DNA of 64,000 nt from NCBI GenBank assembly GCA_038049695.1, contig CP142453.1:1381501-1445500 (forward strand), given 5' to 3'. How positions within the stretch are numbered: the stretch's first letter is position 1; each line of letters starts with the position of its first letter. Below, piece by piece: positions 6,742 to 47,981 of the stretch. Below the pieces are notes generated by a model. The model did not search any database, was not told where the DNA came from, and saw only the letters and a list, made by a program, of their open reading frames with translations. The stretch comes from Cinnamomum chago (Eukaryota; Streptophyta; Magnoliopsida; Laurales; Lauraceae). The position numbers were made by a program, and so were the translations under genes.

Positions 6742-7514
6742 ATCGGTGAGTGATACAAGACTGTGAAGCCTAGTTTATGAAGTTCTCGTGCCTAATAGGC
6801 ACCCTCGGTTCTGGTTCATCAGGCTAAAGGTCAAAGTGGGCTCAACCCATTTGAGAAGTAATTACCTTTCCCCATTTAATTATCCAAGCAGTAAGAAAGT
6901 AGGCCCGGAATTGCCTGGCCCATGACTATCCTCACTCTTATGGGCGCTCATGGGTTGGGTCGGGCTGGCTCAATCTTATCCCAGTCTAGACTGTCTACTT
7001 ATAGGGCCTAATATTCAGGCTTCATAAAAATTTGTGAGGGGAGAATCGACCTTCCACCATAGAATTGTGAGGGGAGAATCGACCTTCCACCATGGAAAGT
7101 CCCATGCCTGATGGTGTTAATTATGAGACTGGAAAATAAGGCCCAAGGCAAGCCTACGAGCTTAAAAACAAAGCCCAAACTATCCTAAGTAACATGGCCC
7201 TGGCTAGCCCAGCGGATGATCCTCTCTCTATCTACCTTAAGAAGATGCTTCCACAAAATTTGGAAATGGGAAATTTGCCGATTATAACATTTCAGCTACA
7301 ACTTGTGAATATGGTTGTGAATTGTGATGTATAACCATCTACGAACATATTATTTTCTGTGGGAACTTGGTCCTTGAGAACTGGATACCTAATGGCCCAA
7401 TAAACAGTGGTCCCATCATATTGTATATATATTTTGTGCTTCATTGACATGGGCTTGTGGCCGGAAACTCTAAAAATAGGCTTTTATTTTATAATTTAGA
7501 GCTTATTTACATAT
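6742..7514. repeat. Duplicated flank, copy 1 (empty site)
   Basis: This stretch recurs nearly unchanged at 45628-45738 plus 47321-47981. Matching landmarks include 'tgatacaagactgtgaagcc', 'caccctcggttctggttcat' and 'actatcctcact'. Copy 1 holds the 18-base sequence gtgggctcaacccatttg once, at 6837-6854. In copy 2 that sequence flanks an inserted LINE, so copy 1 preserves the pre-insertion state. It contains a 30-base internal tandem repeat beginning 'ttgtgaggggagaatcgacc' (about 7031-7095). It lies about 1.1 kb downstream of BAHD gene 1, while copy 2 abuts a BAHD fragment, so both are remains of one duplicated BAHD unit. Confidence 0.9.
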
Positions 7515-15147: not shown

Positions 15148-15501
15148 TAATGCGATCGCATGGGTGTATAAGCGGAAGACTAATCTTTGGATGTTTGACT
15201 TCCACTTGAATAAAATTAGAGAGTTATGTGTTGGAATCAATCTTTCATTCCATCATGAGCTTAGATCGGCTAACTTGGCAAATGTACTAGCCAAGCAAGG
15301 GGTTGATAGACTGCTTTTTTGGGTATGTGTGATTATGTAAATAGTTGATAGGTTGCTTCTTTGGGTGGGTGTGATTATATTAGTAGGGTTGAAGATAGTC
15401 TATTTCTCCTGCACATCCCCTTCCTCTCTTTTCTATGGATTTTTGTACTTTATACATTCTTTACTTTGAATGAAATCTTTCGTTACTGTTCAAATATAAA
15501 T
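15148..15501 (+). mobile_element. LINE 3' end fragment (L1-like)
   Basis: Translation around 15180-15340 gives the tail of a plant LINE RNase H domain: a FHHELRSAN-like stretch, then VLAKQGVDR, as in the ADxLAKxGV motif of the family. A short 3' untranslated stretch follows, ending 'ctttcgttactgttcaaa', typical of plant L1 tails. A 47-base tandem duplication ('gttgatagactgctt' / 'gttgataggttgctt') lies inside. It is severely 5'-truncated. Its end coincides with the insertion point of the next LTR element. Confidence 0.55.
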
Positions 15502-18500
15502 TGATGGGTCAGGCCCAAATGACTCGGTCCACAATGACGGGTCAGGCCTAAGTGACTCGAGTTCGTGATAAGCCCAAGTCCAAATCCATTCATTGAAAGT
15601 TGAGTCCGGATCCACGAAACGACGAAGTCAGCGTGTCGTTTCCCTTAACCCACTTTTACCAAGTCATGCGGAGGAGATCTTACCTGCCTCGCCTGTTGAG
15701 GGCGGTTCGAAGACTCCGCCAGAATAAAGCGCCGTTGCTGAAGAGTCGTCCCCATCTGTTAGGGGAAGACTATAAATTACAAAGCCCCACCAGCACTGGG
15801 GGACAAGAAATCCTTCTCCATTTTTTACACTCTCATTGTATTCATCTGAATTGTAATCTCTACCTCGGAGCAGTAAAATCACCAATTGAAGTGGACGTAG
15901 ATCACAGTTACCGAACCACTATAAACTCCCTCTCTCTCTCTCTATTAATTTTCACATTAATTACTCTTCACTTGACAGGTGGTGCCCGAAACGCTTTTTG
16001 GCATCATCAGTTTGGCGCCGTCTGTGGGAACCGAAGGAAATTCCCTTTTTTCAAAACTATGCCGATCACTACAAGGTCAATGAGGCGACAGAATGGTAAT
16101 TCCTCGCGGGAGGGCTAGGGTAATCCTCTACCGACTAACCCTGCACCGAATGCTCCTGCTCTCTCTCCTCAACAGATGCTGGAAACCATGCAGCAGTTGG
16201 TGACTTAGAACCAGCAGATCTTGCAACTCATGCTTGCAAGGCAAGGAGGAGCACCAATTGGTACAGGACAACAAGAAGTACCGCACCCAGAGCAACCGGT
16301 TGCTCCACGCAGAGGGGCACCTCACCTGGGCGCCCGTCCACATGGTGCCCGGGGCCGAGGCGCCGCCCGTCACCATCCTCACTTGGGCGCCCATTCCTAG
16401 GGCGCACAGGGTCGAGGAGCACACTTGGGAGCCCATCCTCATGGCGCCCATGCCCAGGGCGCCTCTGCTGTAGCTCCCCCCGTCGCCCCACACGAAAGAC
16501 TCTTGGTCAACCCTCAAGGCTGCGCTCATCTCGACGTGCCTCCACCCCCGGGTGGAGCCCCAGGAGGGTCGAATTGCGGTGGACTTCCACCTCCTCCCTC
16601 TACTTCCAATGATGAGGATCCTGATTTCCAGGAGGGGGGAAGTGAAAACCATAGCCTGGAAGATGAGAGTCATTTCCAAGGCCAGTCCAGAGAAGCCCAC
16701 AATCGTTGGGATGAGAAGATCAAGGAAATCGTTCAAACCCGGCGTGGCGAACTACCCACTTCCAAAAAAGTTCAAGATGCCAACCATGGAAACCTATGAC
16801 GGGACAAAGGATCCACTAGACCACCTGGAAACTTACAAAACTCTGATGCAACTACACAACATCTCCGACGAGGTCATGTGTAGAGCATTCCCTACCACGT
16901 TGAAGGGTTCCGCAAGGCAATGGTTCTCCAGTCTGGCCCCAGCCTCCATCTCCACCTTTGCAGAGTTGAGTAACTCCTTCGTGTCACACTTCATTGGAGG
17001 ACGCCACCACCAGAAGCCCGCCACACACCTGCTCAGCATAAAGCAGGATAAAAATGAAAGCCTCAGGAGCTACGTCACTCGTTTTAACGAGGAGGTACTC
17101 CAAGTCGAAGAGCCCGACGACAAGGTATCCATGACAACTTTCCTGGGAGGCCTTCGCTCGTCAAGCTTCCTCTTTTCAGTAACGAAGCGACCACCAAAGA
17201 GCATGCCAGAACTATTGGCAAAAGCTAAAAAATATATGAATGCTGAGGAAATCAACAGGTCCAAGCGGGGTGAATCATCTCGTGGATCGCCAAAAGCTTG
17301 ACCTACCTCTGCACTGTTCTTAAATAGGCAGTCTATCTCCAGCTTAGCGGCTCTCTCGTGGGTCGCAAAAAAGCTTGGCCTCTGCACTGTTCTCAAACAG
17401 CCAGCCTATATATCTAGCTTAGCGACTCTCTCGCGGGTCGTAAAAAAAAAGCTTGGCCTCTGCACTGTTCTCAAACAGGCAGCCTATCTCCAGCTTAGCG
17501 GCTCTCTCGCGGGTCGCTAAAAAAAGCTTGGCCTACCTCTACACTGTTCTCAAACAGGCAGCATATCTCCAGCTTAGTGGCTCTCTCATGGGGCGCCAAA
17601 AGCATGGTCTCAAAAGGCAGGATCTTGAAACTCAGGTCATCTGCAACCCGAAGGACTACATTAAATTAGCGTATCCAACTGTCTGGCCGCCCAAATGAGC
17701 CAGACCAGCGCCAGCAGGGGCGCCCCGTCCGTCTTCCGCCGTAGCAGCAGCGCCCCCGAGCGGCGCCCTCGCTCCCAGCGCCCTGGGCGGCGCCCCGTCC
17801 ATTGCAAATTCATAAGTAAAAGATGACAGGCCAACCATGGCACAGATTGCCTCTTCTAATGCTAGTACAGCTCAGAAACTGCCTTGCCAGAAGATCCAAG
17901 GGGCAAAAATGTAAACACGAACAGAGAAGAAAGAAGCCCAATGATGAACATATCCTCCTCTCTACCAGCTTATCCGTCCATCCCTTATCTTGGATTGGCC
18001 ACTAGCAGCATCACCGTGTTACGAACAAGTGTCATGAATTACATAGTTTCCAGTAAAAGAAAAAAAATCAGATGGCAGGTTATTCAACCCAGACTCTCTG
18101 GATCCAGATACCCAATCAATATAAAAGACAACAGATGATAAAAATCTTGTCTTTGCATTAAACCTGTGAACTTGTAGGTATATAATTGAAGTAAATATTG
18201 CAGCGCCCCCGTCCTCCACCAGCAATAGGCACCAGCGCCCAGCACCAGCAGCGCCCACCAGTAGCCTGGGCGCCCAGCACCAACGCGCGCGCTCCCCACG
18301 CCCGCTCCTTGCCCGCACTCCCAGCGCCCTTCGTGCAAACAACCAGCTCGCCCAGCTGGATTGCGCCCTTAGCCTGGATTACCACTCTTCCCGCCTGGGT
18401 CACCTCTCCCATGTCGCCCCCACAGGCGCCCGGGGCTTCAGCTGCACGCCCAACCAAATCCACTCCAGCTGCACGCCCAACAACGACCCATCATTCAAAA

Positions 18501-19157
18501 AATGAAAAATACTTGGGGTGTTTAGCGAGGCAAAAATATATCATGAAGGGAAATAGTCATCTACCAGAAGGAGTCTCCACCACCCAAAGCTCAAAAATTC
18601 AAGCTAGTGCCCCTTCTCCAAGTTTTCTTAGACAAGGGGCATTGGGGGGCAAATGATGGGTCGAGCCCAAATGACTCGGTCCACAATGGCGGGTCAGGCC
18701 TAAGTGACTCGAGTTCGTGATAAGCCCAAGTCCAAATCCATTCGTTGAGAGTTGGGGCCGGATCCACGAAGCGACGAAGTCAGCGTGTCGTTTCCCTTAA
18801 CCCACTTTTACCAAGTCTTGCGGAGGAGATCTTACCTACCTCGTCTGTTGAGGGCGGTTCGAAGACTCCGCCAGAATGAAGCGCCGTTGCTGAAGAGTCG
18901 TCCCCATCTGTTAGGGGAAGGCTATAAATTACAAAGCCCCACTAGCACTGGGGGACAAGAAATCCTTCTCCATTTTTTACACTCTCATTGTTTTCATCTG
19001 AATTGTAATCTCTACCTCGGAGCAGTAAAATCACCAATTGAAGTGGATGTATGTCACACTGACCGAACCACTATAAACTCTCTCTCTCTCTATTAATTTT
19101 CACATTAATTACTCTTCACTTGACAGGTGGTGCCCGAAACGCTTTTTGGCATCATCA
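15502..19157 (+). mobile_element. Gag-only Ty3/gypsy-type LTR retrotransposon (LARD-like), with both LTRs
   Basis: Two direct LTRs, 15502-16009 and 18654-19157, begin TGATG and end CATCA. By eye they differ at roughly 20 positions, so the insertion is young, perhaps one to a few million years. The LTRs are followed by 'tggcgccgtctgtgggaac', a leader typical of plant Tat-type gypsy elements. A polypurine tract (aaggggcattggggggcaaa) precedes the 3' LTR. Flanks read taaat and tatat, a 4-of-5 match for a target duplication. Inside, only a Retrotrans_gag-like region is seen (about 16750-17270), with no protease, integrase or reverse transcriptase. The rest is non-coding and partly GC-rich with repeated 'gcgccc' words. 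It is non-autonomous and would have needed another element's enzymes. Confidence 0.9.
17288..17605 (+). repeat. Tandem repeat inside the gypsy-type element, unit about 75-80 bp, four copies
   Basis: Units contain 'gcttggcctctgcactgttc', then 'ctcaaacaggcagc', 'atctccagcttagcggctct' and 'ctcgcgggtcgc'. Four copies follow one another directly after the gag-like region. Such arrays after gag are common in Tat-type elements. Confidence 0.8.
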
Positions 19158-20264
19158 TATATATATAGGAGGAAGAAAATGAAGAAAAAGAAAAAAAAAG
19201 GAGAGAAATAGACAAGCAGATGAAGGAAAAGAAAACAAAAATCGAATTTAATCATAGTTCATACCCCTCTTTTTTTTTTTTTACTATAAAAAGAGTAAAA
19301 ATGATGCGCTTTTGATTAAAAAACCATTTTACTTTTTACCAAGAAAGTAAAACAATTACATTCTCGTGGCCACAATCAGTCATATGATCTTGAGTTCGTG
19401 ATCCTTAATTTCAGGGTCTCAAAGTAGATTAGATGACATTCAAGCTTTGAATTTCATTTTCATGTTATCTTTATGGTAGTAGTGAATATTAGGCGGCCAT
19501 GATAACATTAGAAGAGAGATTTTAGGAGATGGAAATCAATATATATATATATATAGAAAGAGATAATAAATGAAAAAGTAAGAACGAAGAAAGCTTAGGT
19601 GGTGATTTTTGGAGTGCTGACGTGGCAATACGAGGCTTGATAGAGTTGACGTGGCACCCTCCACAGCCCACCTCTCCTATTTCTTTAATATATGTGCAAG
19701 ACCAACACCCCCAGCCCCACAAAATTCAACAATCCCTAATGTATTCTTCATTAACAATCATATACTTATATGTACAATATTCGTCCATTCACGTTACATT
19801 CATCATCCACAATCATATACTTATATGTACAATATTCGTCCATTCACGTTACATTCATCATCCACAATCATATGACTACACAAACATTTCTATATTATCC
19901 TTCATTTTAGAGCATTTATATTCTACAATCATTATGATATAATAATTCAATTAATTATTGGTCCATCCAATTTGATTCAAAATTCAAAATTAGAGAGCTG
20001 GCATTTGGAGATTCTTAAGATCCTATTTTGTAGGAAAATTAGAGAATAGTGATTTGTTGAGACTAGATGAGAAGGGGTAATTCCGCAATGTGGCATTGCA
20101 AATAGTCTGAGGATGCGCCACGTGTTGCTCCCCATAAATTCACCTGCTGCTTTAATATATATATATATAAATAAGGATAGGATTTGATTTTGAAATTGGA
20201 GTCTAATTTCTCGACTAGCAAAATGTGGCAAAAAAAAAAATGTTATCGTAAAAAAATCTACTAA
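19158..20264. other. Spacer: end of the orphan BAHD upstream block, then AT-rich sequence
   Basis: About 19163-19260 (from 'ggaggaagaaaatgaag' through 'agaaatagacaagcag' to 'atcgaatttaat') continues the BAHD upstream block interrupted at 15147. A 55-base tandem repeat ('acaatcatatacttatatgt...') follows at about 19755-19868, with two full copies and part of a third. Two short (TA)n runs lie near 19540 and 20155. No gene is recognised. Confidence 0.5.
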
Positions 20265-20289
20265 CACTACAAGAAAAACTGCTTATAGC

Positions 20290-20570
20290 GGGGGCCGGCG
20301 GCCGCCGGTAAAAGATCAGTGGCCGTCGCTTAGCGAGGGTATAGATAGAGTGGGTATAAGTCTTAACGGCGTTTTGGTGACCCCCGCTAAATTTTACTTT
20401 TAGCGGCGGCCAGCCGACCGCCGCTAAAAGTTTTACCGGCGGTCAGTGGCCGCCGGTAAAAGTAAAAAAAGTGTCGCTATATGCTTGGCCGCCGGTAAAA
20501 GTAGAAACTTCTTAAAAAAATACTGCTTTTACCGGCGGTCCTGCGGCCGCCGGTAAAAGCAGTTTTTTTT
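20290..20570. repeat. CACTA subterminal repeat array
   Basis: The word gccgccggtaaaag and its inverse cttttaccggcggt recur about every 30-80 bases (for example 20301-20314 and about 20449-20462). They often form perfect local hairpins, such as 'taccggcggtc' paired with 'gccgccggta'. The right end of the element lacks this array, so the two ends are asymmetric. Confidence 0.8.
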
Positions 20571-21003
20571 TTTTTTTTCTTTTGCTACAAATATTAGCCA
20601 CATCCACTATAGCACGCCTTTCATGTATTGGTACTCTTCTTGAGACTTAACAATCTAATATAAACATCTACCAGAAACTCACCACATACGAATTATATTC
20701 AAATAAATCCACATACACAAAAGAAAAAGAAAAAGAAAAAAAAAAAAGAAAAGAAGAAGAGAGAGAGAGGCCCGAGCTGCCCAATTGACAACCTCATCTC
20801 CCAATATGAAATCCAAGACCATCATATATATCTTCCAATCATTACTCATACTCAAATAGAAAAATTAATAAAATAAAAGTGCAGAAACTGAGAGGATGTC
20901 AAAAGAGGCCCACATTATTGTCTCAAATCCACTCCATCAAACACCAAACAGTTTTCAACCTGAGATTGCCTAGTCTTGCAATCAAAACAAAATACAGAAG
21001 GGC

Positions 21004-21152
21004 TAAACAACATTTGAGTTGGTTGGGAAAGGACTGAACCGAGTTTGCATCAACGTCTTAGTGACTGTAAGGAACTCAACATTCTCAATGTCCATGTCCA
21101 GATCAGTTTCTTCCTTCACCTCTCTCACCCCACACTCTTCAAAGCTCTCACC
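21004..21152 (-). pseudogene. Captured Nudix hydrolase exon (NUDT1-like)
   Basis: The minus strand reads GESFEECGVREVKEET, which fits the Nudix box GX5EX7REUXEEXGU, although the last glycine is replaced (EETDLD instead of EETGLD). The following residues, VEFLTVT, match plant NUDT1-type enzymes that hydrolyse NTPs or dihydroneopterin triphosphate. An acceptor (ttgttgtag) sits directly before GTGAGAGC, the place where a plant intron splits this box. Only this one exon is recognised. The N-terminal half and the C-terminal strand are missing, so no working enzyme is expected. It lies inside the CACTA element, next to the lectin fragment. Confidence 0.7.
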
Positions 21153-21479
21153 TACAACAAATACATGCAACATAATAAACAAACACAACAACAACAACAA
21201 GAGAGAGAGAGGGAGAGAGCTTCTTAAATCTCCACCACTAACTAATAAAAATTCAAACATCAGATTTCGTATTTCTGAAAGTCTCCGACACAGCTCATAT
21301 GATTATGATTATTTATGCAATACAAACGTGCAAATAACCATGTACCCTGGACTACATTTAGCAATAATATGATTTATTTACCCCTATAAAAAAACTCAAA
21401 CTTAAAGTCCATGTCACATAGAGTTTATACATACTGAGATTGTATTGAAATTTCCCTTATTTCTCATGAGCGCTTTGGA

Positions 21480-22562
21480 TTAATAGCTAAATAATTTTGG
21501 CATTATTGACTTGGTGGCTCTTCTCTCTCCTAACCAATGTTGCATATGGACTCCAATTGCATCCAAGTATAGTCCACTCCTGCCATGAAATCCAACCACC
21601 TTTCCCTCTGTAGTTGTAGAAGTGAAAAAGGTCCCTATCTCCTCCCAATAAGGGCCATACTTCCCCCTTGTGGTATAGAATGTGAGAGAGGTGATTACTT
21701 TGGGCCTCTCATCTCTGTTGACGGAACTATAATAGCCACAGATGCAATTGAGGACTTCATTTGGGTATGCAAACTGGACCTGGAAAGAACATAACAGCAA
21801 CAATGTAAGTCGGAGGCGGCGTAATCTTAGAACATGAAAAATTAGAATCCCAACATCTATTACCTTAAGTGTGGCCTCTCCACCACCAGCTCCATGTTTG
21901 GTAGACCAAACAGATTGCCCATTTCTGTCATACTCAACTTGTATTGAAGTAATTGCTTGTCCCCTTGTTATGAAAATCTGCTTTATACCTGAAAAGACAC
22001 CATCATCCCATGGTCTACCTCCTTCACCACCCCATGGCCCTGGTCCACTTGGCACTGGTTCTTTTATCACACTATAAGCAACCTGTATTTGTGCCCCATT
22101 AGAGAAGGTTGAAGTGTAGATTATAGATATAATTTGAAGTTTAAAGTATATTGTTGATTCAACAATTAAAGTAAGAAAGGTTGTATATACCTCCTCTGTT
22201 CCCCCAAGACCTCTCTTAGCAAGCATTAGTTTGTTAGACCATTGAGGATTATCAACCTCAGACACTGCAGCATCACTCAAAAGTGTGTTAGGCAGGGAAG
22301 GTTGTGGCAAAGATAACTTTCCTTCCAGAACATGAACTCCAATGCTATCTATGCACCATCCTTTTCTCCCATGAAAACCAACTATCATTCCTGCTTTCAT
22401 ATTGGAAGAGAAGTACAACCCCTGTTCATCTCCGAATGGTCCATATTTCCTTTTTGTGGTATGAAATGTCAAAGACTTCACTGCTGTTGGTCCCATTATT
22501 AATGTAGCTCCATAGTAGCCAGATATATGAGTCAAGACTTCATACGGGTAATCAAAGATAAT
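21480..22562 (-). pseudogene. Captured jacalin-related (mannose/glucose-binding) lectin fragment, three exons
   Basis: The exons read 22562-22191, 22082-21864 and 21779-21480 on the minus strand, with clean GT/AG borders. The first gives the C-terminal two-thirds of one jacalin domain, ending in the sugar-binding GXXXD loop (GWCID). The second and third give a complete second domain, from GPWGGEGGRPWDDG to GLYLD in GFHGRSGLYLD. Both introns (108 and 84 bases) are multiples of three and open in the same frame. The ORF therefore stays open over 374 codons even unspliced, an oddity worth noting. Plant lectins of this class usually have two or three tandem domains, so the fragment lacks the start of the first. 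The reading frame is not broken, which suggests recent capture or some constraint. As part of a CACTA transposon it is best treated as a gene fragment unless transcripts are shown. Confidence 0.88.
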
Positions 22563-22604
22563 CTGTACAAGGATAGAAAGTTTTTTCTTTTTGGTTAAGA
22601 ACAA

Positions 22605-24980
22605 TTGTGAAGCTAACTACACTTTCAATGGTCATCTTTGACACCAACTGTAAAGGCTTGCTAGTGTTGCTTTTATGTAGTCACTAGCCAAACAGGCCAG
22701 TGCCCAACATGTCCCATACTAAAAAGATAATAAAATTTTATAATAGAATCACTTAAATAAAAAAATTGTCGATGACAAAGGGTGCAGAACTGCAGATGAC
22801 ATAAGTTTGCTGTAAACTAAAAAACTTGACACAATTTGTACCGGCTTATGCCCCAAGTTTAGGAATAAAGAGAAGCATAATATTAGTGAAAATGAAAAGC
22901 TATACAATTAGTTGTAAGATTTATAATTAGTAATGAAAGGTGCATTGGATATATAACATCATAGTTAGTCGTTAGAGAGCTATACAATTAGTAGTCAGAG
23001 AGCCGTTGGCATGCATTTTTGAAGGTTGCTCAGTTTCGATATATTTTCATGATGGCATGTCATTATCTCTCATGGGGCCAAAGAAAAAGGTGCCCAGGGA
23101 AGTTAAAGGGCACCAAATCAACATGCAGTTGTTCATTGAACAAAAGTTTAACCAACCAAAACTTGTTTCAAGTTTCATGAAAATCTGAATAGCTGCCCCA
23201 AGTAAAACGCTTAGGTTACTCCATATCAAGAGATAAACATAATGAGAAAGCAAGCTCTGTCAAAAGTAAATTTTGATAATTTAGTTTTAATAAGATAATT
23301 TTCATCTAATATACATAAAATCAAATGTGCAAACAAATTTCTACATTGGTTGGTTGTTTTCATAACATATGTTGTTCATGTGCACAAGAAAACATTCTAG
23401 TCTTCCATCATCCATCACAACTTCAGACTGCTGACAAGTTAGCCCTTAGAAAATGGACTAGAATTCTCCATGACAGTAGTGACCTCCTAATGTGAACTGT
23501 GCATCTAATTCCAAGCTTGAACATGATGGGTGATACTATACTGATCAGAATTCAACTATGAACATCTTGCTAATCCATGCATGTATTTATGGGTACATAC
23601 ACAGTTTGATTATTTCAGTTGGACTTGGAACAAGTAACTGTTTATCCACAGGATCTTGCCATGGAACATAAATCATTATGAAGCAATTCATGCATCTCCA
23701 ACCATGTGGGCTCTTCTACTTATTTGGGTTGGTGATAGAGGAACATGAGAAAGACAGATTGAGGATGTTTCACATCTCGATGATTCCAAACACTAGAAAC
23801 TAAGCGAACAGATGATATGGAATTAGTAATAGCAGCAGCAGAACAAGAAGAATAAGGCAATTCACTCATATTACAATTGTAGGCTTCTATTCTCATTTGG
23901 GTGAGTGAAACTCAATTCATTACATATGGGCATGTTTCCTCATTTGGGTTTGTGAGAGAATAAGATGAGGAAGATTGGGTGAAGTTGTTATACTTAGATA
24001 AGCATAAAAACTACTAACAAAGCAAGAAATACTATTACTTGTGCTAATAGTATCACTCACCTTCCAATGAAGAAACAGAGTGAAGAAACAGGAAACAACA
24101 ACACACACAAGAAAAAAAAAACACAACAAAGTAAGCAAAGATAAAGTAAAAGTAAAGGTTAAGTGTTAAAATACATCGAGTCCAACTTTACACTCGCCGA
24201 ACCTTCACTCACCTGTATGTATTGAGTCTCAAATCTATGATTAAGATGCAATTAATTAAACTTTGAGGTGTTAAATCAAGGGCCACTAGGATAGTATGTG
24301 GGTCTGGTTTTTTGGCTCCCCATTATCCATTATGAGAGCTTTCATTTGCCCATCTGCATTGATCGTTATGTATTTTTATGAGCCTCATAAGTTGGACCTC
24401 ATCCAACCACTATGCAGTCTGCTCATAGAAGAACATTCTCCTTTGATTAAAAAAGAAAATTACATTAGTTAACAGTTTGATATTGTTGTCAGCTTAAATA
24501 CCAAATTACCAACTCAAAATGTCTTAACAAATTCTAAAACTTGAAACATGGCCATATGTGAAACAGGGAGAACTGTAAGCAGACTAAAAGGACAAACCAT
24601 GATCCTCGTGCTGCAAATTTCAATTTGCTGATCCAATTAATTGTCATATTTCTTTTAGCCAGAGGAAAAAATTCTTCTTTCTTGACACGTCTTAGATGGA
24701 TGAAGGCCTTCTAGCCTTTTCAGAAGCTTGCACGTCTCCTGAAATCTAGATCCTTTATGCTAGCTCCTTTTAAATTACACAAGTACCTAGAGACAGAGAT
24801 CTAGCACACATGCCCTTAAATAACCCATAACCAATGGAAGAACAACAGAATGCAGCTGGCATGGCATGAAAAGGAGACATTGGTAAATGTACTGAAACCT
24901 TAACCCTACATCCCATATCACATAAAAATAACAAGCCCTATCCATTGAAAATGGAAAAAAAAAAAATAGGAGCATTCCTC
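22605..24980. other. CACTA interior without recognised gene
   Basis: This stretch is AT-rich and has no clear ORF. It may be intron or flank of the captured lectin or augmin genes. No transposase similarity was noticed. Confidence 0.4.
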
Positions 24981-24984
24981 AGAC

Positions 24985-25370
24985 CCTATGTGTTCATGTC
25001 ACTTAAACAATCATCAGCAGAGTACTACAGAGACTAATCCCACTTACATTAACAACAAGAAGGTCTAAAATCCTAGTAAGGAAAAAAATGCAGAAACGAA
25101 ACAGCAGAAAAACCAGAACCATATCTGTTAATCTCACTTAAACAACAATCAGAAGATCCTTTCAGAGACTAATCCCACTTACAATACAACAACGATATCT
25201 AAAACCCTAGTAAGGAAGAAAATGCAGAATCAAAACGCAGAAAAACCAGAACCATATGTATTAATCTCACTTAAACAACAATCAGAATATCATTTCAGAG
25301 GCTAATCTCACTTACACTGCAACAACTAGATCTAAAACCCTAGAAACAAAGAAAATGCAAAAAAACAACT
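24985..25370. repeat. Tandem repeat inside the CACTA element, unit about 133 bp, three copies
   Basis: Copies start near 24989, 25123 and 25256 and share 'atctcacttaaacaac', 'agactaatcccacttaca' and 'cagaaaaaccagaaccat'. Copies 2 and 3 are most alike. Slightly downstream, a 45-base sequence ('aaaccatatcaatcgcacga...') is repeated with a 90-base period at about 25682 and 25772. Confidence 0.85.
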
Positions 25371-25825
25371 GAGCTAAACTTCCAAAAAAACCCCCCAATC
25401 GCAAATGTATGAAGCAAAAATCAAAGACTCAGTTCGGATTAAGCAACCAAAACTCAATAAAACACAAACGAACTGAAGAAAACCGGAATCTAAGCCCGAA
25501 AAACTAACTGAAAAAAGGGAACAAAACAAACAAAGAAGAAGAAGAAAACATCACTAGATGGAATACATAAACAAAATGAAGAAGATCAAACCACAAAACC
25601 TTCGAAAACTCAACAGATCTAAGCAAAAACGAAATGAATGGTGATAGATTGAGAAAGAGAGAAGAAACAAGGAAATGGTAAAACCATATCAATCGCACGA
25701 GGCACATCAATATATAATCAAAAGAGGAAAGGATTTTTACCAAATAATTCATATTAGCAATCATCTGTAAACCATATCAATCGCACGAGGCACATCAATA
25801 TATAATCAAAAGAGAATATCAGATC

Positions 25826-26267
25826 CGACCGCTCCAGGAGACAATCTCTCCAACGCCAATTCCAAATTTTCCAAAATCTCCCTAATCCTCACAGCTGTAA
25901 AAACCATCAAAAGCAGAGAATTTCCTACTAAATCTAGGTTTTCAGCCGAGCCACTTGTTTTTTCAAATGAAGGTCTGGAACACTTGGTTCCAAAACCCTA
26001 GGTCTGACCTTGGGAGCGGTAGTCGGAGGCCTTGAGGCGGAGATCGGAGGCGATGATGCTGGCGGCGCGGGTGTTGGCCTTGGAGGCGGTGGCGAGAGCA
26101 TGGAGTCGAGTTATGCTTCGCGGCGTGTACTCGAATGCTAGAACGTCTCTTCCGGCGCTCGCGTCGAATTGCGAGGCCAGCCACGATTCGACCTCTGCAA
26201 TTCGAGCGGCGTCGTCGAAGCTGGTGGTGTTGGTGTTCTTCCATTCGGGTGAAATGCGATCGTTCAT
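25826..26267 (-). pseudogene. AUG1: Captured 5' fragment of augmin (HAUS) complex subunit 1
   Basis: On the minus strand, exon 1 (26267-26009) starts MNDRIS and includes AARIAEVESWLASQF, FEYTPRSITRLHALAT and SDLRLKASDYRSQ. These match my memory of plant AUG1, a subunit of the augmin complex that recruits gamma-tubulin to existing microtubules. A donor (CAAG|GTCAG) and an acceptor (TTTTTACAG) bound an intron. Exon 2 (25894 to about 25826) continues VRIREILENLELALERLSPG in the expected order. The fragment stops there, whereas full AUG1 has about 300 residues. A GA/TC-rich leader of about 250 bases, probably the captured 5' untranslated region and promoter, runs up to the CACTA right end. It has no visible break and may still carry promoter activity. 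Confidence 0.8.
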
Positions 26268-26602
26268 GTCGAAATCTCACGATCTCTCGATCGAAATGAG
26301 GAAGAAGAGGATGAAGATTTTGAAACCCTAGAAGGAGAAGGAGAAGGAGATTGAGAGCAGAGGTACGGAAGAGATGAGGAAGAGTTCGCTGAAACAGATC
26401 TTCTGTTTGGGCGTCGCCGAGACTTGAGCGTGAGCAGAAGAGAGAGCGTGAGCGTTAGCAGAAGAGAGAGCGCAGGAAAGAGCGAGAGAGGCAACGATGA
26501 GCCAGAGCAGGATAGAGGGAACGATGAGTGAGGGAAACGATTAAAATAACTAGCGATTTTAAGTGATTGGCGTCTTTTAAAATACTTTTTCTTGTAGTGT
26601 AA

Positions 26603-31045: not shown

Positions 31046-31501
31046 ATGGATGCTACTACTCCCAAGTATTCAGAGGGGAAACGTACAATGAAATTGTGGA
31101 GTAACTCTCTCATTACCTCAGGAAAGTTGGTTACAAGTATGATAAAATCCCTTTTGTTCCAATCTGTGGGTCTGAGCGTCACAAGTATGATAAAATCCCT
31201 TTTGTTCCAATCTCTAGGCGCTTTGGAACTGTTGTTATTGGTTGTGTTGAGGCCGGATTCCTTCTTCTTCTCATTACTTTTGCTCCCTGTTGCCTAACAG
31301 TTGCTCAGGGTGATGATGTGAGCTTTTCGGTCGGTAGACAGATAGCTGCCATGAATATGAGGCGTGGGCATGTCACCTCGCATACCTTGTTTAACTCAGC
31401 TTTAAGTGCTGCTAGCTTCACTGCATATGTCGTTATCCTGAATCGCCCCAGACACATTGAGAATGGTTATTTGCGAGGATCTTTAAGAAGATTGATAGGC
31501 A
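31046..31501 (+). pseudogene. EF1A: EF-1alpha pseudogene, exon 2, left part
   Basis: The exon starts exactly after the intron's AG with MDATTPKYSE, as in plant EF-1alpha. A KSLLFQS-type stretch corresponds to the KIPFVPISG region read out of frame. A 40-base segment ('caagtatgataaaatccctt...') is duplicated at about 31134 and 31182. Later parts match GTVVIGRVE, then a diverged segment, then the FTSQVIIMNHPG-IGNGY region (read as FTAYVVILNRPRHIENGY). Long stretches are deleted and several frame changes exist. It is cut at 31501 by the copia insertion and continues at 37981. Confidence 0.85.
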
Positions 31502-34500
31502 TGTTATATCATTATTAACATGAACCCTAAGATCGTGAACAACATGATAGTCACATGCAAGATTTAATCTTAAATAAGTTAAAGAATACCTCCAGACATC
31601 CTGATGCAGAGAGCTTTCCGATCCTGCTGTCTGGCGCTGTTGTCGAGATCCGTCGAAGAAGAGGCTGGGTAAATGGTTCCAGTTTCCCTCTCCTTGCCTA
31701 TAAACCTTAATGTGTTGATTTTGTGTGTAGCCTTTGTGATGGACCAAAGGCTTTATTTATAGGTGGAGAGAGGACCAAATTTCCAATTAGGTTTACTTTA
31801 GATTTGATCTCAACCGTCCATCAAGGTAGAGAATATTAAGGAAACTATCTCATTAGGAAACCTTTTTGAGTAATTATAGCGTATGTATCCTATGAAATCG
31901 GAATTCCTATTATGACCACACTTCTAGAAAGGAAAGGACTTGTGGTCCAAGTAATGGGCCTAAAATAATTTCCTTACAGTCTCCCACTTGGTCAATAGGA
32001 ATTTCATTAATGTTTTCATTATTAGGAATCATAAGGCGCGCATTATATGCTAAACACTGCTTTAGTCGGTTATCATAGGTGTCTTGGCTAATTCGGTTGT
32101 TAATGGGAGTCATGGCGTGCACATATTATTTTGCAACATGTTTACTTCCATGTACCACGTCATTTACAACCGTCATAACTAGACCATAAGATGAGATTTA
32201 CATAATGGTCCCATAATGTCTTTGTTTAAAGACTGTTTCTGTTTATCATTTATCCAAACATAATTATGTACACAATGGAAAAACAGAAATAGTAGATGTA
32301 GAGTTGCATTAAGAGCTCAATAAATGTCAAATACAAGTACAGAAATAAATAAGCAGAAAATGATAATTAAGAACTATCTTGAAGACCCATGCTTTCAGTA
32401 TGTCCTTGAAAGGTGTTTGGAGGTAGTCCTTTCGTGAATATGTCTGCGACCATGAAATCTGTACGTATAGACTCAACGACAAATTTTTGTAGTCTAACAT
32501 CTTGCTTCAGTGATAGATATTTAAGGTCCATGTGTTTGGATCCCTTAGATATCCTGTCATGCTTAGAGAAGAAGGTTGCAGCTTCATAACATGCCACATA
32601 TTCAGCCATCATGGTGGATGTGTTAAGCAACTCTGATTTCTGGCTTTTCCATGATATTGCTCCTCCACATAAGAGATACACATAGCCAAGAGTGCAGAGT
32701 CTGGTGTTAGGACATCCAGCAAAATCTGAATCGGAATAACCAGTCACCTGTAGGTGACTTGATTTTCTGTATGTGAGCATATACTTCCTTGTTCCCTTGA
32801 GGTATCTCAGTACTTTCTTTGCAGCTTTCCAATGAGCGATTCCTGGGTTACTTTGAAATCTACCCAGCATGCCGACAACATGACTAATGTCAGGTCTTGT
32901 ACAGACCTGTGCATACATCAAACTTCCTACAAGAGAAGCATAAGGATATTTTTCCATTTCTTTACGTTCCAATTCGTTCTGTGGACACTGCGTAAGATCA
33001 AGCTTGTCTCCTTTATGCAGTGGAACAGGACTAGAAGAACATGTCATCATGCCAAATCTCTCTAGAACTTTGTCAATATATGCTTGCTGAGACAATCCCA
33101 AAATACCAAGTGACCTGTCACGGAATATTTCTATTCCAATCACATAGGAAGCCTCACCCATATCTTTCATTTCAAAGTTCTTAAAGAGATATTCCTTTGT
33201 CTCATGTAACAGACCAAGGTCGCTACTAGCCAGTAATATGTCATCAACATACAGAACCAAAAATATGAACTTACTCCCACTGATCTTGAGATATATGCAA
33301 GGGTCAACTATGTTTTCTTTGAAATCGAAGGCAGTAATGATTTCATGAAACTTGAGATACCATTGCCTCGAAGCTTCTTCAGTCCATATATTGATTTCTT
33401 AAGTTTGCAGACCATGTCTTCCTGACCTTCAATTATGAAGCCTTCAGGTTGACGCATGTAGACTTCTTCTTCCAAGTCTCCATTAAGAAAGGCAGTTTTC
33501 ACATCCATTTGATGTAACTCGAGGTCATAGTGAGCTACTAATGCCATGATAATTCTAAGAGAATCCTTCCTGGACACAGGGGAAAAAGTCTCAGTATAAT
33601 CAATGTCTTCTTTCTGATTAAAACCTTTGGCAACAAGTCTGGCTTTATGTCGTTCAATATTGCCTTTGCAGTCGTGTTTGGTCTTGAAGACCCATTTACA
33701 GCCAACTGGTTTGTGTCCTGGAGGCAATTGAACAACTTCCCATACTTGATTTTCATCCATAGATTTCAATTCTTCTTTCATGGCATCAATCCATTTACTA
33801 GAATTAACATCCTTAATGGCCTGTGAATAAGAAACCGGGTCTTTAATTGTCCCTTCTTCATATTCTACTTGGTAAAGCATGTAATCATCGGAAATAGCTG
33901 ATCTCCTTTGTCTTTGAGACCTTCTTAATGCTGGTCCCTCTGGTGCTTCATCCATATGTTCATTGGTGACAATCTCATTATGGAGTTGTTGATCATTTAT
34001 TGGATTTTCCTCATTGTTAAAGGGTTCAACAACGGGAGGATTTCCAACATCTTTCGGAATGGAGGGTAAAGGGATAGGTACCCTGATTTCCTGAATGATC
34101 ACATCTTGAGTTTTATTACTCCCACTGATTTCACCATTTTCAAAGAATCTAGCATTACCGGTTTCAACAATTCTTGTACTATGGTTAGGGCAGTAAAACC
34201 TAAATCCTTTGGACTTTTCTGGGTAACCTATAAAGTAACCACTGATCGTTTTAAGGTCCAATTTCTTTTCATGTGGGTTGTAGACTCTAGCCTCAGCTGG
34301 GCAACCCCAAATTTGGAGATGTCTTAAACTAGGTTTCCACCCTTTCCACAGTTCAAAAGGTGTCTTTGGAACTGCCTTACTGGGAACCCTATTCAAGATA
34401 TAAACAGCTGTGCGTAGAGCATCCATCCACAAGGATATAGGTAAGTTGGCATGACTCATCATGGATCTAACCATTTCCATGTATGTACGATTTCGCCTTT

Positions 34501-37500: not shown

Positions 37501-37980
37501 ACATGTTATATCATTATTAACATGAACCCTAAGATCATGAACAACATGATAGTCACATGCAAGATTTAATCTTAAATAAGTTAAAGAATACCTCCAGACA
37601 TCCTGATGCAGAGAGCTTTCCGATCCTGCTGTCTGGCGCTGTTGTTGAGATCCGTCGAAGAAGAGGCTGGGTAAATGATTTCGATTTCCCTCTCCTTGCC
37701 TATAAACCTTAATGTGTTGATTTTGTGTGTAGCCTTTGTGATGGACCAAAGACTTTATTTATAGGTGGAGAGAGGACCAAATTTCCAATTAGGTTTACTT
37801 TAGATTTAATCTCAACCGTCCATCAAGGTAGAGAATATTAAGGAAACTATCTCATTAGGAAACCTTTTTGAGTAATTATAGCGTATGTATCCTATGAAAT
37901 CGGAATTCCTATTATGACCACACTTCTAGAAAGGAAAGGACTTGTGGTCCAAGTAATGGGCCTAAAATAATTTCCTTACA
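31502..37980 (-). mobile_element. Ty1/copia LTR retrotransposon inside EF-1alpha exon 2, both LTRs present
   Basis: Two LTRs, 31502-31978 and 37504-37980, read TG...CA. By eye they differ at about eight positions in 477, so the insertion is young. A 5-base target duplication, aggca, lies at 31497-31501 and 37981-37985. On the minus strand come the tRNA-iMet-type primer-binding site (just left of 37504), gag (about 35800-36220), a CCHC knuckle region (about 35540-35590), an integrase with HKRLGHIS, the copia reverse transcriptase with YVDDI, and RNase H (about 32370-32800). A polypurine stretch adjoins the LTR at 31979. The layout is complete, but the coding part has a small number of breaks, so it is a nearly whole, defective copy. 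Another LTR of the family lies at 63713-64000 in the opposite orientation. Confidence 0.94.
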
Positions 37981-45738: not shown

Positions 45739-47302
45739 CTACTGGAAGGATGACCCGGCAGGCACATGCAAATTTAAGTCAATCTATAAGCATCTTTTGC
45801 CAAGACCGGTGGGACCAAACCTGCCTTGGAAGGACATTTGGAAATTGCCAATCCCTCACAAGTTACAACTTTTCAGCTGGAAACTTCTACAAGACAGATT
45901 ACCCACCAAACATCAGTTATATAGATGGCTAACTTCTGTGGATAAAATGTGCCCCTTATGTAGACAAGCGGATGAAACAGTGGAACACCTTTTTGCACAA
46001 TGCACTTTAACTAATCTCTGTTGGCTTGCACTACCTTCGGGTATTTTTAAGCCTGACTCAGGAGTCTCAGTAGTCAGTACACGCATGGTTTTGGCAGAGG
46101 TTCAACCAGGACACCTGGACCCTCGGTATCATCCTGATGTGGTACCTATGGAAAGCAAGGAACAACTACATCTTCAATTTCCAACCACTGAACCCACCAC
46201 TCTATACAACCCCGAGGGGTAGCTCAGTTGGCCTAGGACTACGGTTTGCACCCGAAGGCTGTGGGTTCGAAACTGCTCTACCACACTGGGGCCACAGGGG
46301 AATTTTACCTGGCTTTCTCTCCTGGGCCCGTAGGGATTATTCTGGCCCAAAGGGCTGGGAACCTACGTTATCAAAAAAAAAAAAAAAAAAACCCACCACT
46401 CTATTATTAAACATAAAATTCTTTCAACCTTGTTAGCTCTTCAACTCACTACTCTTTATGCAGGTCCGGGCTCGGCTATGGCAGTCCACCCCGACTGGTG
46501 GCTTCCCCCTCCACCGAGTTGGCTGAAGCTCAATTTTGATGGAGCCTTCAATCACTTCACACATCAGGCAAGAGTTGGAGGGGCTATTCGCGACCCTTTT
46601 GGCAACCTGGTCACAGCGTACTCAGGGGAAATCAATGCTGTACACCCACTTGAACCTGAACTTACTGCCTTGCAACGAGGATTACTGCGATGCCAAGACC
46701 TCAAGCTGACCCACATGCAAGTGGAAGGTCACTGTCTCGCCGTAGTGACGTCCATACAATCTTTAGGTCACTTGTCTTGGGACATGATGGGCCTGTGGAA
46801 ACGGGTTATGCATCTGCTGGCCGCAATTCCAAGCTGGTCAATTCATTACTGCAAGAGATTGGCGAACACACACTCGCAGATTTACTGGCAAAACACGAAG
46901 GCCCGATCATCACAAACATTGCAGCTGCGTTGCCTATCCAAGCCAGAGAAGCCTACATTGAGGAACGAGACCGCGCGGCCTCTTACACTATTGCATTCTT
47001 CCAAGACTACGTGAATCTCTTTGCTTCATCAAGCACATCGGAAGTCCAGCCGCGGGTAGGACCTCGTAGCGTCATGCCGAGTAGGGGGGTTCGAACAGGG
47101 TTGTTGCAGCTCCAACGCCCACCATGCAATGGACTAATATCTTCGCAGGCAATAGCGATAGCGACAAAGAATGGTATTTTGGTAGCCTTTTTTTTGCTTA
47201 ACCCATGTCTGGGAGGCCGGAATGTATTGTCATAATCAATGATCTTGTAAACATCATCACTTAACTAAATAAAATCCCTATTTTGACGGCATAAAAAAAA
47301 AG
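45739..47302 (+). mobile_element. 5'-truncated LINE (L1-like), with poly(A) tail and 18-bp target duplication
   Basis: The insert begins within the zinc-binding reverse-transcriptase domain (zf-RVT, about 45790-46060) with the family pattern IPHKLQLFSWKLLQDRLPT, then CPLC and HLFAQC. After a nested SINE, an RNase H domain follows (about 46510-46930): LNFDGAF, GGAIRDPFGN, ELTALQRGL and LADLLAKHE. The last motif lies in a different frame from the start, so at least one frameshift exists. In the family motif VEGDS, Asp is replaced (VEGHC). A short 3' region ends in a run of A. The 5' truncation, A tail and 18-base duplication are the hallmarks of target-primed reverse transcription. Endonuclease and most of the reverse transcriptase are missing, so it is inactive. 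Confidence 0.94.
46191..46404 (+). mobile_element. tRNA-derived SINE, copy 2, nested in the LINE
   Basis: The SINE body (46206-46389) lies between perfect 15-base duplications, aacccaccactctat (46191-46205 and 46390-46404). A-box-like tagctcagttggcc starts near 46219, and the B box ggttcgaaac is at 46264-46273. It ends in about 18 A. The body matches the copy at 10093-10283 along its whole length apart from scattered changes. It interrupts the LINE between its zf-RVT and RNase H domains, so it is younger than the LINE. Confidence 0.93.
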
Positions 47303-47981
47303 GTGGGCTCAACCCATTTGAGAAGTGATTACCTTGGCCCATTTAATTATCCAAGCAGTAAGAAAGTAGGCCCGGAATTGCCTGGCCCATGACTATCCTC
47401 ACTATTATGGGCGCACTCATGGGTTGGGTGGGGCTGGGGTCAATCTTGTCCGGGTCTAGCCTGTCTACTTATAGGGCCTTATATTCAGGCTTCATAAAAA
47501 TTTGTGAGGGGAGAATCGACCTTCCACCATAGAATTGTGAGGGGAGAATCGACTTTCCACCATAGAAAGTCCCATGCCTGATAGTGTTAATTATGAGACT
47601 GGAAAATAAGGCCCAAGGCAAGCCTACGAGCTTAAAAACAAAGCCCAAACTATCCTAATTAACATGGGCACATATGGCTCTGGCTAGCCCAGCGGATGAT
47701 CCTCTCTCTATCTACCTTGAGAAGATGCTTCCACAAAATTTGGAAATGGGAAATTTGCCGATTATAACATTTCAGATACAACTTGTGAATATGGTTGTGA
47801 TGTGTAACCATCTCCGTACATATTATTTTATGTGGGAACTTGGTCCTTGAGAACTGGATACCTAATGGCCCAATAAACAATGGTCCCATCATATTGTATA
47901 TATTTTGTGCTTCATTGACATGGGCTTGAGGAATCTTTAAACATAGGCTTTTATTTTATAATTTGTAGCTTATTTACATAT

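What the first reader, a model, noticed from the sequence alone, without database searches (positions are those of the whole stretch)
20265..26599. CACTA transposon carrying pieces of three unrelated host genes in one orientation
The ends are exact (14-bp CACTACAAGAAAAA repeats, TAA duplications). Between them lie a Nudix exon, three lectin exons and two augmin exons, all on the minus strand, with introns kept and no transposase seen. Multi-gene capture by a CACTA element with intact splice sites is uncommon and could give a chimeric transcript driven by the captured augmin promoter near the right end.
Basis: partly seen in the sequence, partly recalled or inferred. Interest (0 to 1): 0.85.

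Follow-up and report, generated by a model that had tools for sequence, protein, structure and literature searches.

The report
Jumping gene carrying spliced host-gene pieces
A plant jumping gene has picked up pieces of three ordinary genes from three different chromosomes and carries them all pointing the same way as its relatives' own transposase gene; such elements are known, but the one-way loading seen across its relatives is a pattern worth testing.

Summary
20265-26599 is a complete CACTA transposon (14-bp inverted ends, TAA duplication) without a detected transposase, carrying Nudix, jacalin and HAUS1 pieces with splice sites kept. A second copy (37 differences in 6314 aligned bases) sits on another contig with its own TGG duplication; likely donor genes lie on contigs C5, C1 and C8. 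It is a Pack-CACTA / Tpn1 / Tgm-Express kind of element, so multi-gene capture as such is known.

The reading changes. Capture was serial and modular: all or part of the Nudix block is at 33 other loci, HAUS1 is in four other elements besides the sister, and the jacalin piece is in another CACTA element. Family transposases run right to left (15 of 15 found inside family ends), so the window's right end is the element's own 5' side; at most ~89 bp upstream of the HAUS1 start was captured, so a captured augmin promoter is not supported. HAUS1 exon 1 joins jacalin exons out of frame but the Nudix exon in frame.

New here: in the related elements sampled, host-gene families were found only on the transposase-sense strand (11 against 0, besides the original three). 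Whether this reflects transcription-coupled capture or retention, and whether any transcript exists, is untested.

The parts
20262..20264 (.). target-site duplication TAA, left copy
   Evidence: sequence; relatives have TGG/TGG, TCT/TCT, CTC/CTC and one imperfect TAT/TGT
20265..20571 (+). left terminus: 14-bp TIR and GC-rich subterminal repeats (CCGCCGGTAAAAG type); the 3' side of the transcription unit
   Evidence: the first 27 bases occur 55 times in the genome exactly, reversed control 0
20647..21253 (-). captured NUDT1-like (Nudix) gene piece: part of the intron, terminal exon 21151-21003 with native stop, 3'UTR and downstream sequence; carries an in-frame deletion of 56 codons (168 bp) relative to the donor
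   Evidence: Pfam; donor C5:80496700-80497900 = L072; all or part of the block at 33 other loci, the exon itself at 24 of them
21248..22584 (-). captured 3' part of a jacalin lectin gene: three exons 22562-22191, 22082-21864, 21779-21480, with stop and 3' sequence
   Evidence: Pfam, exons, donor C1:100336054-100337402 in a jacalin cluster
21248..21253 (.). Nudix/jacalin junction; AAAATT is shared by both parents (microhomology)
22585..25686 (.). patchwork of common CACTA interiors (pieces about 84-100% identical to many other places), with a 133-bp tandem repeat at 24983-25363
25681..25814 (+). perfect 46-bp direct duplication (25681-25726 and 25769-25814) next to the HAUS1 piece
25820..26356 (-). 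captured 5' part of HAUS1 (augmin subunit 1): up to 89 bp upstream of the ATG, exon 1 (26267-26009) with 5' splice site, intron 1, truncated exon 2
   Evidence: Pfam; donor gene C8:68512236-68517853
26353..26599 (-). right terminus, family-wide, CT-rich on the sense strand: the element's own 5' side. The window copy lacks 41 bp that the 16 other right ends aligned have
26600..26602 (.). target-site duplication TAA, right copy

Best explanation
20265-26599 is a non-autonomous Pack-CACTA element, most likely moved in trans by Transposase_21 of its own family, which is encoded elsewhere in the genome. Its cargo was built up in steps: a NUDT1-like gene was captured, lost 56 codons, and was amplified as part of the left end of a large subfamily; the 5' end of HAUS1 was placed just inside the right end of another lineage; a jacalin fragment, probably one already carried by mobile elements, was then joined in through short microhomology, most likely by repair-type template switching between elements (inferred). 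The finished mosaic moved as a unit at least once. The cargo lies in transposase sense, from the element's own 5' (right) side to a Nudix 3'-terminal exon with a stop at the left, so a right-to-left spliced transcript is possible (inferred, not shown). The cargo is most likely neutral passenger DNA.
For: TIR and TSD; sister copy with another TSD, 37 substitutions in 6314 aligned bases; donors on three contigs with no CACTA end found in the DNA held for each: NUDT1 L072, 1.2 kb, jacalin L034, 4.1 kb, in a cluster, HAUS1 L069, 9.9 kb, with matches to the first and last parts of the HAUS1 profile about 5 kb apart; all or part of the Nudix block at 33 other loci; Nudix plus HAUS1 without a jacalin hit in C2a, C9a and C8a and at C6 by coordinates; CACTA element C1b and copies L031 and L032 share one jacalin capture: the same donor breakpoint followed by the same 39 bases of non-donor sequence; window jacalin is 0.51% from L031 and 1.36% from the donor; AAAATT junction; 15 of 15 transposases found inside family ends run right to left (13, 6, 4 of them the same); HAUS1 exon 1 shows dN/dS of 0.31, 0.96, 1.62 and 2.29 between the window and four element copies, and the C6 copy has a stop and no ATG.
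Against: Template switching is inferred from one junction with 6-bp microhomology; fusion of neighbouring elements is not excluded. That the window's jacalin piece belongs to the shared capture is likely but not proven: its own breakpoint removed the diagnostic junction, and of nine sites where all five copies differ from the donor, a paralogue sides with the copies at five, with the donor at two and with neither at two, so most of that signal is change in the donor. No CACTA ends were found in the 4.1 kb held around L031 and L032. Few changes underlie the dN/dS values (1-2 synonymous, 2-7 replacement per pair), so selection is poorly tested. One search used hand-typed end coordinates, some standing in for ends by interior similarity. 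No RNA data.
Confidence: 0.88

Rival explanations
1. The element is a functional chimeric gene: transcription from the right end splices HAUS1 exon 1 to the Nudix terminal exon and makes a 134-residue fusion protein kept by selection.
For: Both splice sites are phase 1, and the joined frame is open from the HAUS1 ATG to the native Nudix stop; 27 of 28 Nudix exon matches, native genes included, have no stop inside.
Against: No sign of constraint among HAUS1 copies (dN/dS 0.31-2.29 against the window, few changes) and one copy has lost its ATG and gained a stop; the captures are recent, so open frames are expected anyway; in-frame joining happens by chance one time in three; no AATAAA in the 20265-21000 stretch, only AATAAT at 20919.
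Confidence: 0.07
2. The mosaic arose by fusion of neighbouring CACTA insertions whose outer ends were used together, taking the DNA between them (the Pack-CACTA model described in PMC8903248 and PMC13317346), not by repair-type template switching.
For: It is the published model for Pack-TYPE elements (PMC8903248 section 9 read; PMC13317346 passages seen).
Against: Donors are on three different contigs; only the two outer TIRs match in the window; the junction seen at base level is a clean 6-bp microhomology join inside the Nudix intron; breakpoints just inside the left module differ between relatives. None of this excludes fusion in several rounds with later loss of inner ends.
Confidence: 0.25
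3. The one-way orientation of cargo is chance or shared descent, not a rule.
For: Only 11 Pfam families plus the original three, from a sample chosen by similarity to this element; some loci are close relatives of each other; at least two of the 11 are below Pfam's cut-off; the two host-type families in the flanking control (DUF247, PMEI) also fell on the minus strand, so the control does not show balance; grapevine Cactavine-5 carries a PPR fragment opposite to its transposase (PMC2528002, passages seen).
Against: 11 to 0 gives p about 0.001 two-sided and 14 to 0 about 0.0001 if each family is one event; plus and minus ORF numbers were similar (105/127 and 69/80).
Confidence: 0.27

Closest known systems
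Tgm-Express1, soybean CACTA element (PMC1947982: abstract, Background section and passages seen)
   Same: CACTA element of similar size (5.7 kb) holding pieces of five unrelated genes with exons and introns; chimeric splicing shown there
   Different: There the isolated transcripts start at the host F3H promoter; here no transcript data and no host-gene insertion shown. Here the Nudix block recurs at 33 other loci and the transposase direction of the family is known
Tpn1 family, Japanese morning glory (PMC5105172: passages seen; Kawasaki and Nitasaka 2004 not seen)
   Same: Conserved ends with internal sequence replaced by captured host sequence; chimeric transcripts reported
   Different: Here the region just inside the left end is itself a captured gene 3' end, and some right ends carry a captured gene 5' end; I did not check whether Tpn1 has the like
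Pack-CACTA / Pack-TYPE elements (PMC8903248: sections 9 and 10 and passages seen; Catoni 2019 not held)
   Same: Non-autonomous, coding DNA of several loci between TIRs
   Different: That survey set orientation arbitrarily because it cannot easily be defined in non-autonomous elements; here it is set by transposase-bearing relatives
CACTA gene capture on wheat chromosome 3B (PMC4290129: passages seen)
   Same: 140 capture events, exon shuffling, and two CACTA families that the authors suggest recently exchanged DNA
   Different: Some captured genes there are expressed and under selection; no such sign in the HAUS1 copies here
Maize Helitrons with stepwise capture (PMC3288121: passages seen)
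   Same: Multiple gene fragments gained over several steps
   Different: Rolling-circle elements without TIRs or target-site duplication (recalled)

Membership tests
CACTA (En/Spm) superfamily | terminal inverted repeats beginning CACTA | tested here: met
   14 of 14 bases identical at both ends
CACTA (En/Spm) superfamily | 3-bp target-site duplication | tested here: met
   TAA here; TGG, TCT and CTC in three relatives, one relative imperfect
CACTA (En/Spm) superfamily | subterminal repeats at both ends | tested here: inconclusive
   Clear at the left; at the right only a CGGCGGTCACTT-type stretch in relatives, which the window copy has lost
CACTA (En/Spm) superfamily | family transposase of the Transposase_21 type | tested here: met
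   Not found in this element, but 15 hits lie within 20 kb inside related ends
Pack-CACTA / Pack-TYPE | non-autonomous, host coding DNA inside | tested here: met
Pack-CACTA / Pack-TYPE | donor genes elsewhere in the genome | tested here: met
   C5:80497 kb, C1:100336 kb, C8:68512 kb
Pack-CACTA / Pack-TYPE | moves as a unit with its cargo | tested here: met
   Sister copy with a different TSD
Tgm-Express-like exon shuffler | chimeric spliced transcripts | not testable with these tools
   No RNA data; only splice sites and frames

The most novel reading that the evidence does not exclude
This CACTA family works as a natural exon trap: its inner ends have become gene ends (own 5' region, in some lineages with a captured first exon, ATG and 5' splice site; and a captured 3'-terminal exon with acceptor, stop and 3'UTR), and cargo is gained or kept only in transcript sense, because capture or retention is tied to transcription from the element. 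It would be a CACTA lineage with strictly directional gene capture.
Probability: 0.3. Interest if true: 0.72.

Novelty: new member of a known kind. Interest (0 to 1): 0.45.

Why it matters
Capture of host exons by DNA transposons is an accepted source of new genes, but how capture happens and what filters the cargo is unsettled. Here likely donors, related elements with other combinations of the same pieces, transposase-bearing relatives and a sister copy are all in one assembly, so the order of captures can be studied. The one-way cargo pattern separates models: neutral repair predicts both orientations, whereas transcription-coupled capture, or purging of antisense cargo, predicts one.

Tried and rejected
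Rejected: C5:8.199 Mb as the HAUS1 donor (dS about 0.5); the C8 gene is far closer. Chance pairing of two ends: rejected by the sister copy. An orthologous empty allele could not be tested in one assembly; one search gave only repeat copies aligning across the join (7 of the 43 non-self rows start at query position 133 or lower and end beyond 290; alignment letters not seen). Led nowhere: Rfam scan of the window (0 hits), bacterial-type promoter scan of the right end (not meaningful in a plant), papers joining CACTA, captured gene and Nudix (0 papers). Not attempted: naming the plant species; dating in years.

Rows dropped: in the orientation count only E of 0.001 or less was used. Left out were, on the minus strand, Peptidase_C1 0.0011, DUF6133 0.0018, DHHC 0.0034, ZZ 0.0054, OB_SHLD2 0.0059 and THU_Piezo1 0.0062, and on the plus strand PsbY 0.0067 and 0.0031. 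Two of the 11 counted (PCRF, TPR_27) are below Pfam's own cut-off; without them it is 9 to 0. I saw per-ORF tables only for the 20 ORFs and the first member of each set. The second ORF set holds loci related to the first.
Full report
What is there. The window lies at C3:1381501-1445500 of a 1.06-Gb assembly in 14 contigs, by its genes a plant. The two 14-bp ends are the only matches in the window even with one mismatch and are flanked by TAA on both sides. The enclosed 6335 bp hold a Nudix piece, three jacalin exons and two HAUS1 exons, all on the minus strand. No transposase family was hit in the 16 ORFs of at least 50 aa tested from 22585-25700.

It is a real insertion of a mobile unit. A second copy at C1:127710025-127716443 aligns end to end with 37 substitutions in 6314 columns and 8 gaps, and has TGG on both sides. 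The window copy has a private loss of 41 bp near its right end; the 16 other right ends aligned have that stretch. With the window flanks joined, repeat copies elsewhere, for example C4:78035427-78035612 at 88% over query 115-295, align across the join at position 165, so the element sits inside a repeat whose other copies lack it.

Donors. Nudix: an intact two-exon NUDT1-like gene at C5:80496700-80497900 (L072). The element block equals L072 positions 1112 down to 292, that is part of the intron, the terminal exon with its own stop, and 3' sequence, minus 56 codons around L072 473-638; this gap is seen in the window and in the 13 left-end loci compared. Four of those loci (L051, L052, L057, L058) reach further back, to L072 84 or 185, so a larger part of the gene was taken and later trimmed. 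Jacalin: C1:100336054-100337402, in a cluster of jacalin genes, 1.36% from the window over 1178 sites. HAUS1: a gene at C8:68512236-68517853 with matches to the first and last parts of the profile, 96.3% over 537 columns; similarity ends 86-89 bp upstream of the ATG. In the DNA held around these three loci no CACTA end was found.

Assembly order. All or part of the Nudix block occurs at 33 loci besides the window, its sister and the native gene, a lower bound because 40 of 106 candidates were scored; the exon itself is at 24 of them, and the 13 such loci fetched all have a CACTA end beside it. Elements C2:29270261-29280100 (TCT/TCT) and C9:65148852-65158115 (CTC/CTC) have Nudix and HAUS1 but no jacalin; C8:39767876-39773925 likewise with an imperfect TAT/TGT. 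An element at C1:23.37 Mb has the same left end and a longer jacalin piece followed by a release-factor-like exon, without Nudix. Two further jacalin copies (C3:121.46 and C11:29.23 Mb; no CACTA ends in the DNA held) are 99.1% identical to each other over 3.7 kb. These two and the C1:23.37 element end their jacalin piece at the same donor base and continue with the same 39 bases of other sequence: one capture, now in different surroundings. The window piece ends earlier, so it cannot be tested at that junction; it is closest to the C3:121.46 copy (0.51%). Base differences alone are weak evidence: of nine sites separating the five copies from the donor, a paralogue sides with the copies at five, with the donor at two and with neither at two. 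The Nudix/jacalin junction lies in AAAATT, shared by both parents. Just inside the Nudix block relatives continue with different cargo.

Direction. Of 150 scored Transposase_21 hits (of 1658 candidates), 13 lie within 20 kb inside a family end as listed by me and all 13 run from the window-right end to the window-left end. With the 55 exact left ends instead, 6 of 6 do so and none lies within 20 kb outside; together 15 of 15. The right end is therefore the element's 5' side, and Nudix, jacalin and HAUS1 are in transposase sense.

Cargo orientation test. I took stop-to-stop ORFs of at least 50 aa from the cargo of relatives: first set 105 plus and 127 minus, second set 69 plus and 80 minus. At Pfam E of 0.001 or less the minus strand gave 11 distinct host families (CTP_synth_N, DUF7705, PEX14, NAD_Gly3P_dh, PCRF, Solute_trans_a, Ank, K_trans_C, TPR_27, UCH, DEAD) and the plus strand none. 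With the three original genes this is 14 to 0. Control: sequence just outside element ends, 79 plus and 80 minus ORFs, gave one family on plus (zf-RVT) and four on minus (DUF247, PMEI, RVT_2, zf-BED). The two host-type families there are also on minus, so this control is too small and does not show balance. Other limits: loci were found by similarity to this element, some are close relatives, donors of these 11 were not located, and two of the 11 are under Pfam's cut-off. A grapevine CACTA carries a PPR piece opposite to its transposase (PMC2528002), so this is not a rule for all CACTAs.

Expression potential. HAUS1 exon 1 ends in phase 1 and the Nudix terminal exon begins in phase 1; joined they read 134 residues to the native stop. 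Joined to any jacalin exon the frame stops within a few codons. The family-wide right end is CT-rich on the sense strand; whether it is a promoter is not shown. HAUS1 exon 1 differs between the window and four element copies by 1-2 synonymous and 2-7 replacement changes, and the C6 copy has lost the ATG and gained a stop: compatible with passenger DNA, but with little power.

Known or new. Soybean Tgm-Express1 (PMC1947982), morning-glory Tpn1 (PMC5105172), Pack-TYPE elements (PMC8903248) and wheat CACTAs that seem to exchange DNA (PMC4290129) cover the main features. I saw no report of strict co-orientation of CACTA cargo with transposase in the listings of searches or in the passages I opened, and the Pack-TYPE survey says orientation of non-autonomous elements cannot be defined easily; papers I could not see, among them Kawasaki and Nitasaka 2004 and Catoni 2019, may say more. 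Verdict: new member of a known kind, with a family-level directional pattern that deserves a proper census.

Noticed in passing
G000:C1:48251530-48282905 and C1:111160187-111188799: Exact CACTA end sequences recur at near-constant spacing: five at 7843-7845 bp, and three at exactly 14306 bp, as if whole elements with flanks were duplicated in tandem.
   Followed up: no
window 31500-31978 and 37502-37980: Direct repeats of 479 bp, 98.3% identical and 6.0 kb apart, possibly the LTRs of a young LTR retrotransposon.
   Followed up: no
window 15498-16009 and 18651-19157; 6833-7514 and 47299-47981: Further direct repeats (95% and 92% identical), possibly LTRs of a short element and two copies of another family.
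   Followed up: no
G000:C1:1729710-1729841 and C1:1733393: A HAUS1 last-exon match, with the same score as that of the C8 gene, lies 3.6 kb from a CACTA end of another subfamily, possibly an independent HAUS1 capture.
   Followed up: no
L068 5961-6318, L033 606-963: The same release-factor-like (PCRF) stretch, 98.3% identical, sits in two elements with otherwise different cargo; the Pfam match is weak (E=1.2e-4 and 0.0044).
   Followed up: partly
window 25681-25814: A 46-bp segment is perfectly duplicated 88 bp apart beside the HAUS1 junction; the ordinary relatives compared match only to about 25686, so the stretch up to 25819 may be repair filler.
   Followed up: partly
window 21500-22584: The captured lectin is closest among solved structures to the lectins 1zgr and 4mq0 (Parkia biglobosa lectin) by sequence.
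   Followed up: no
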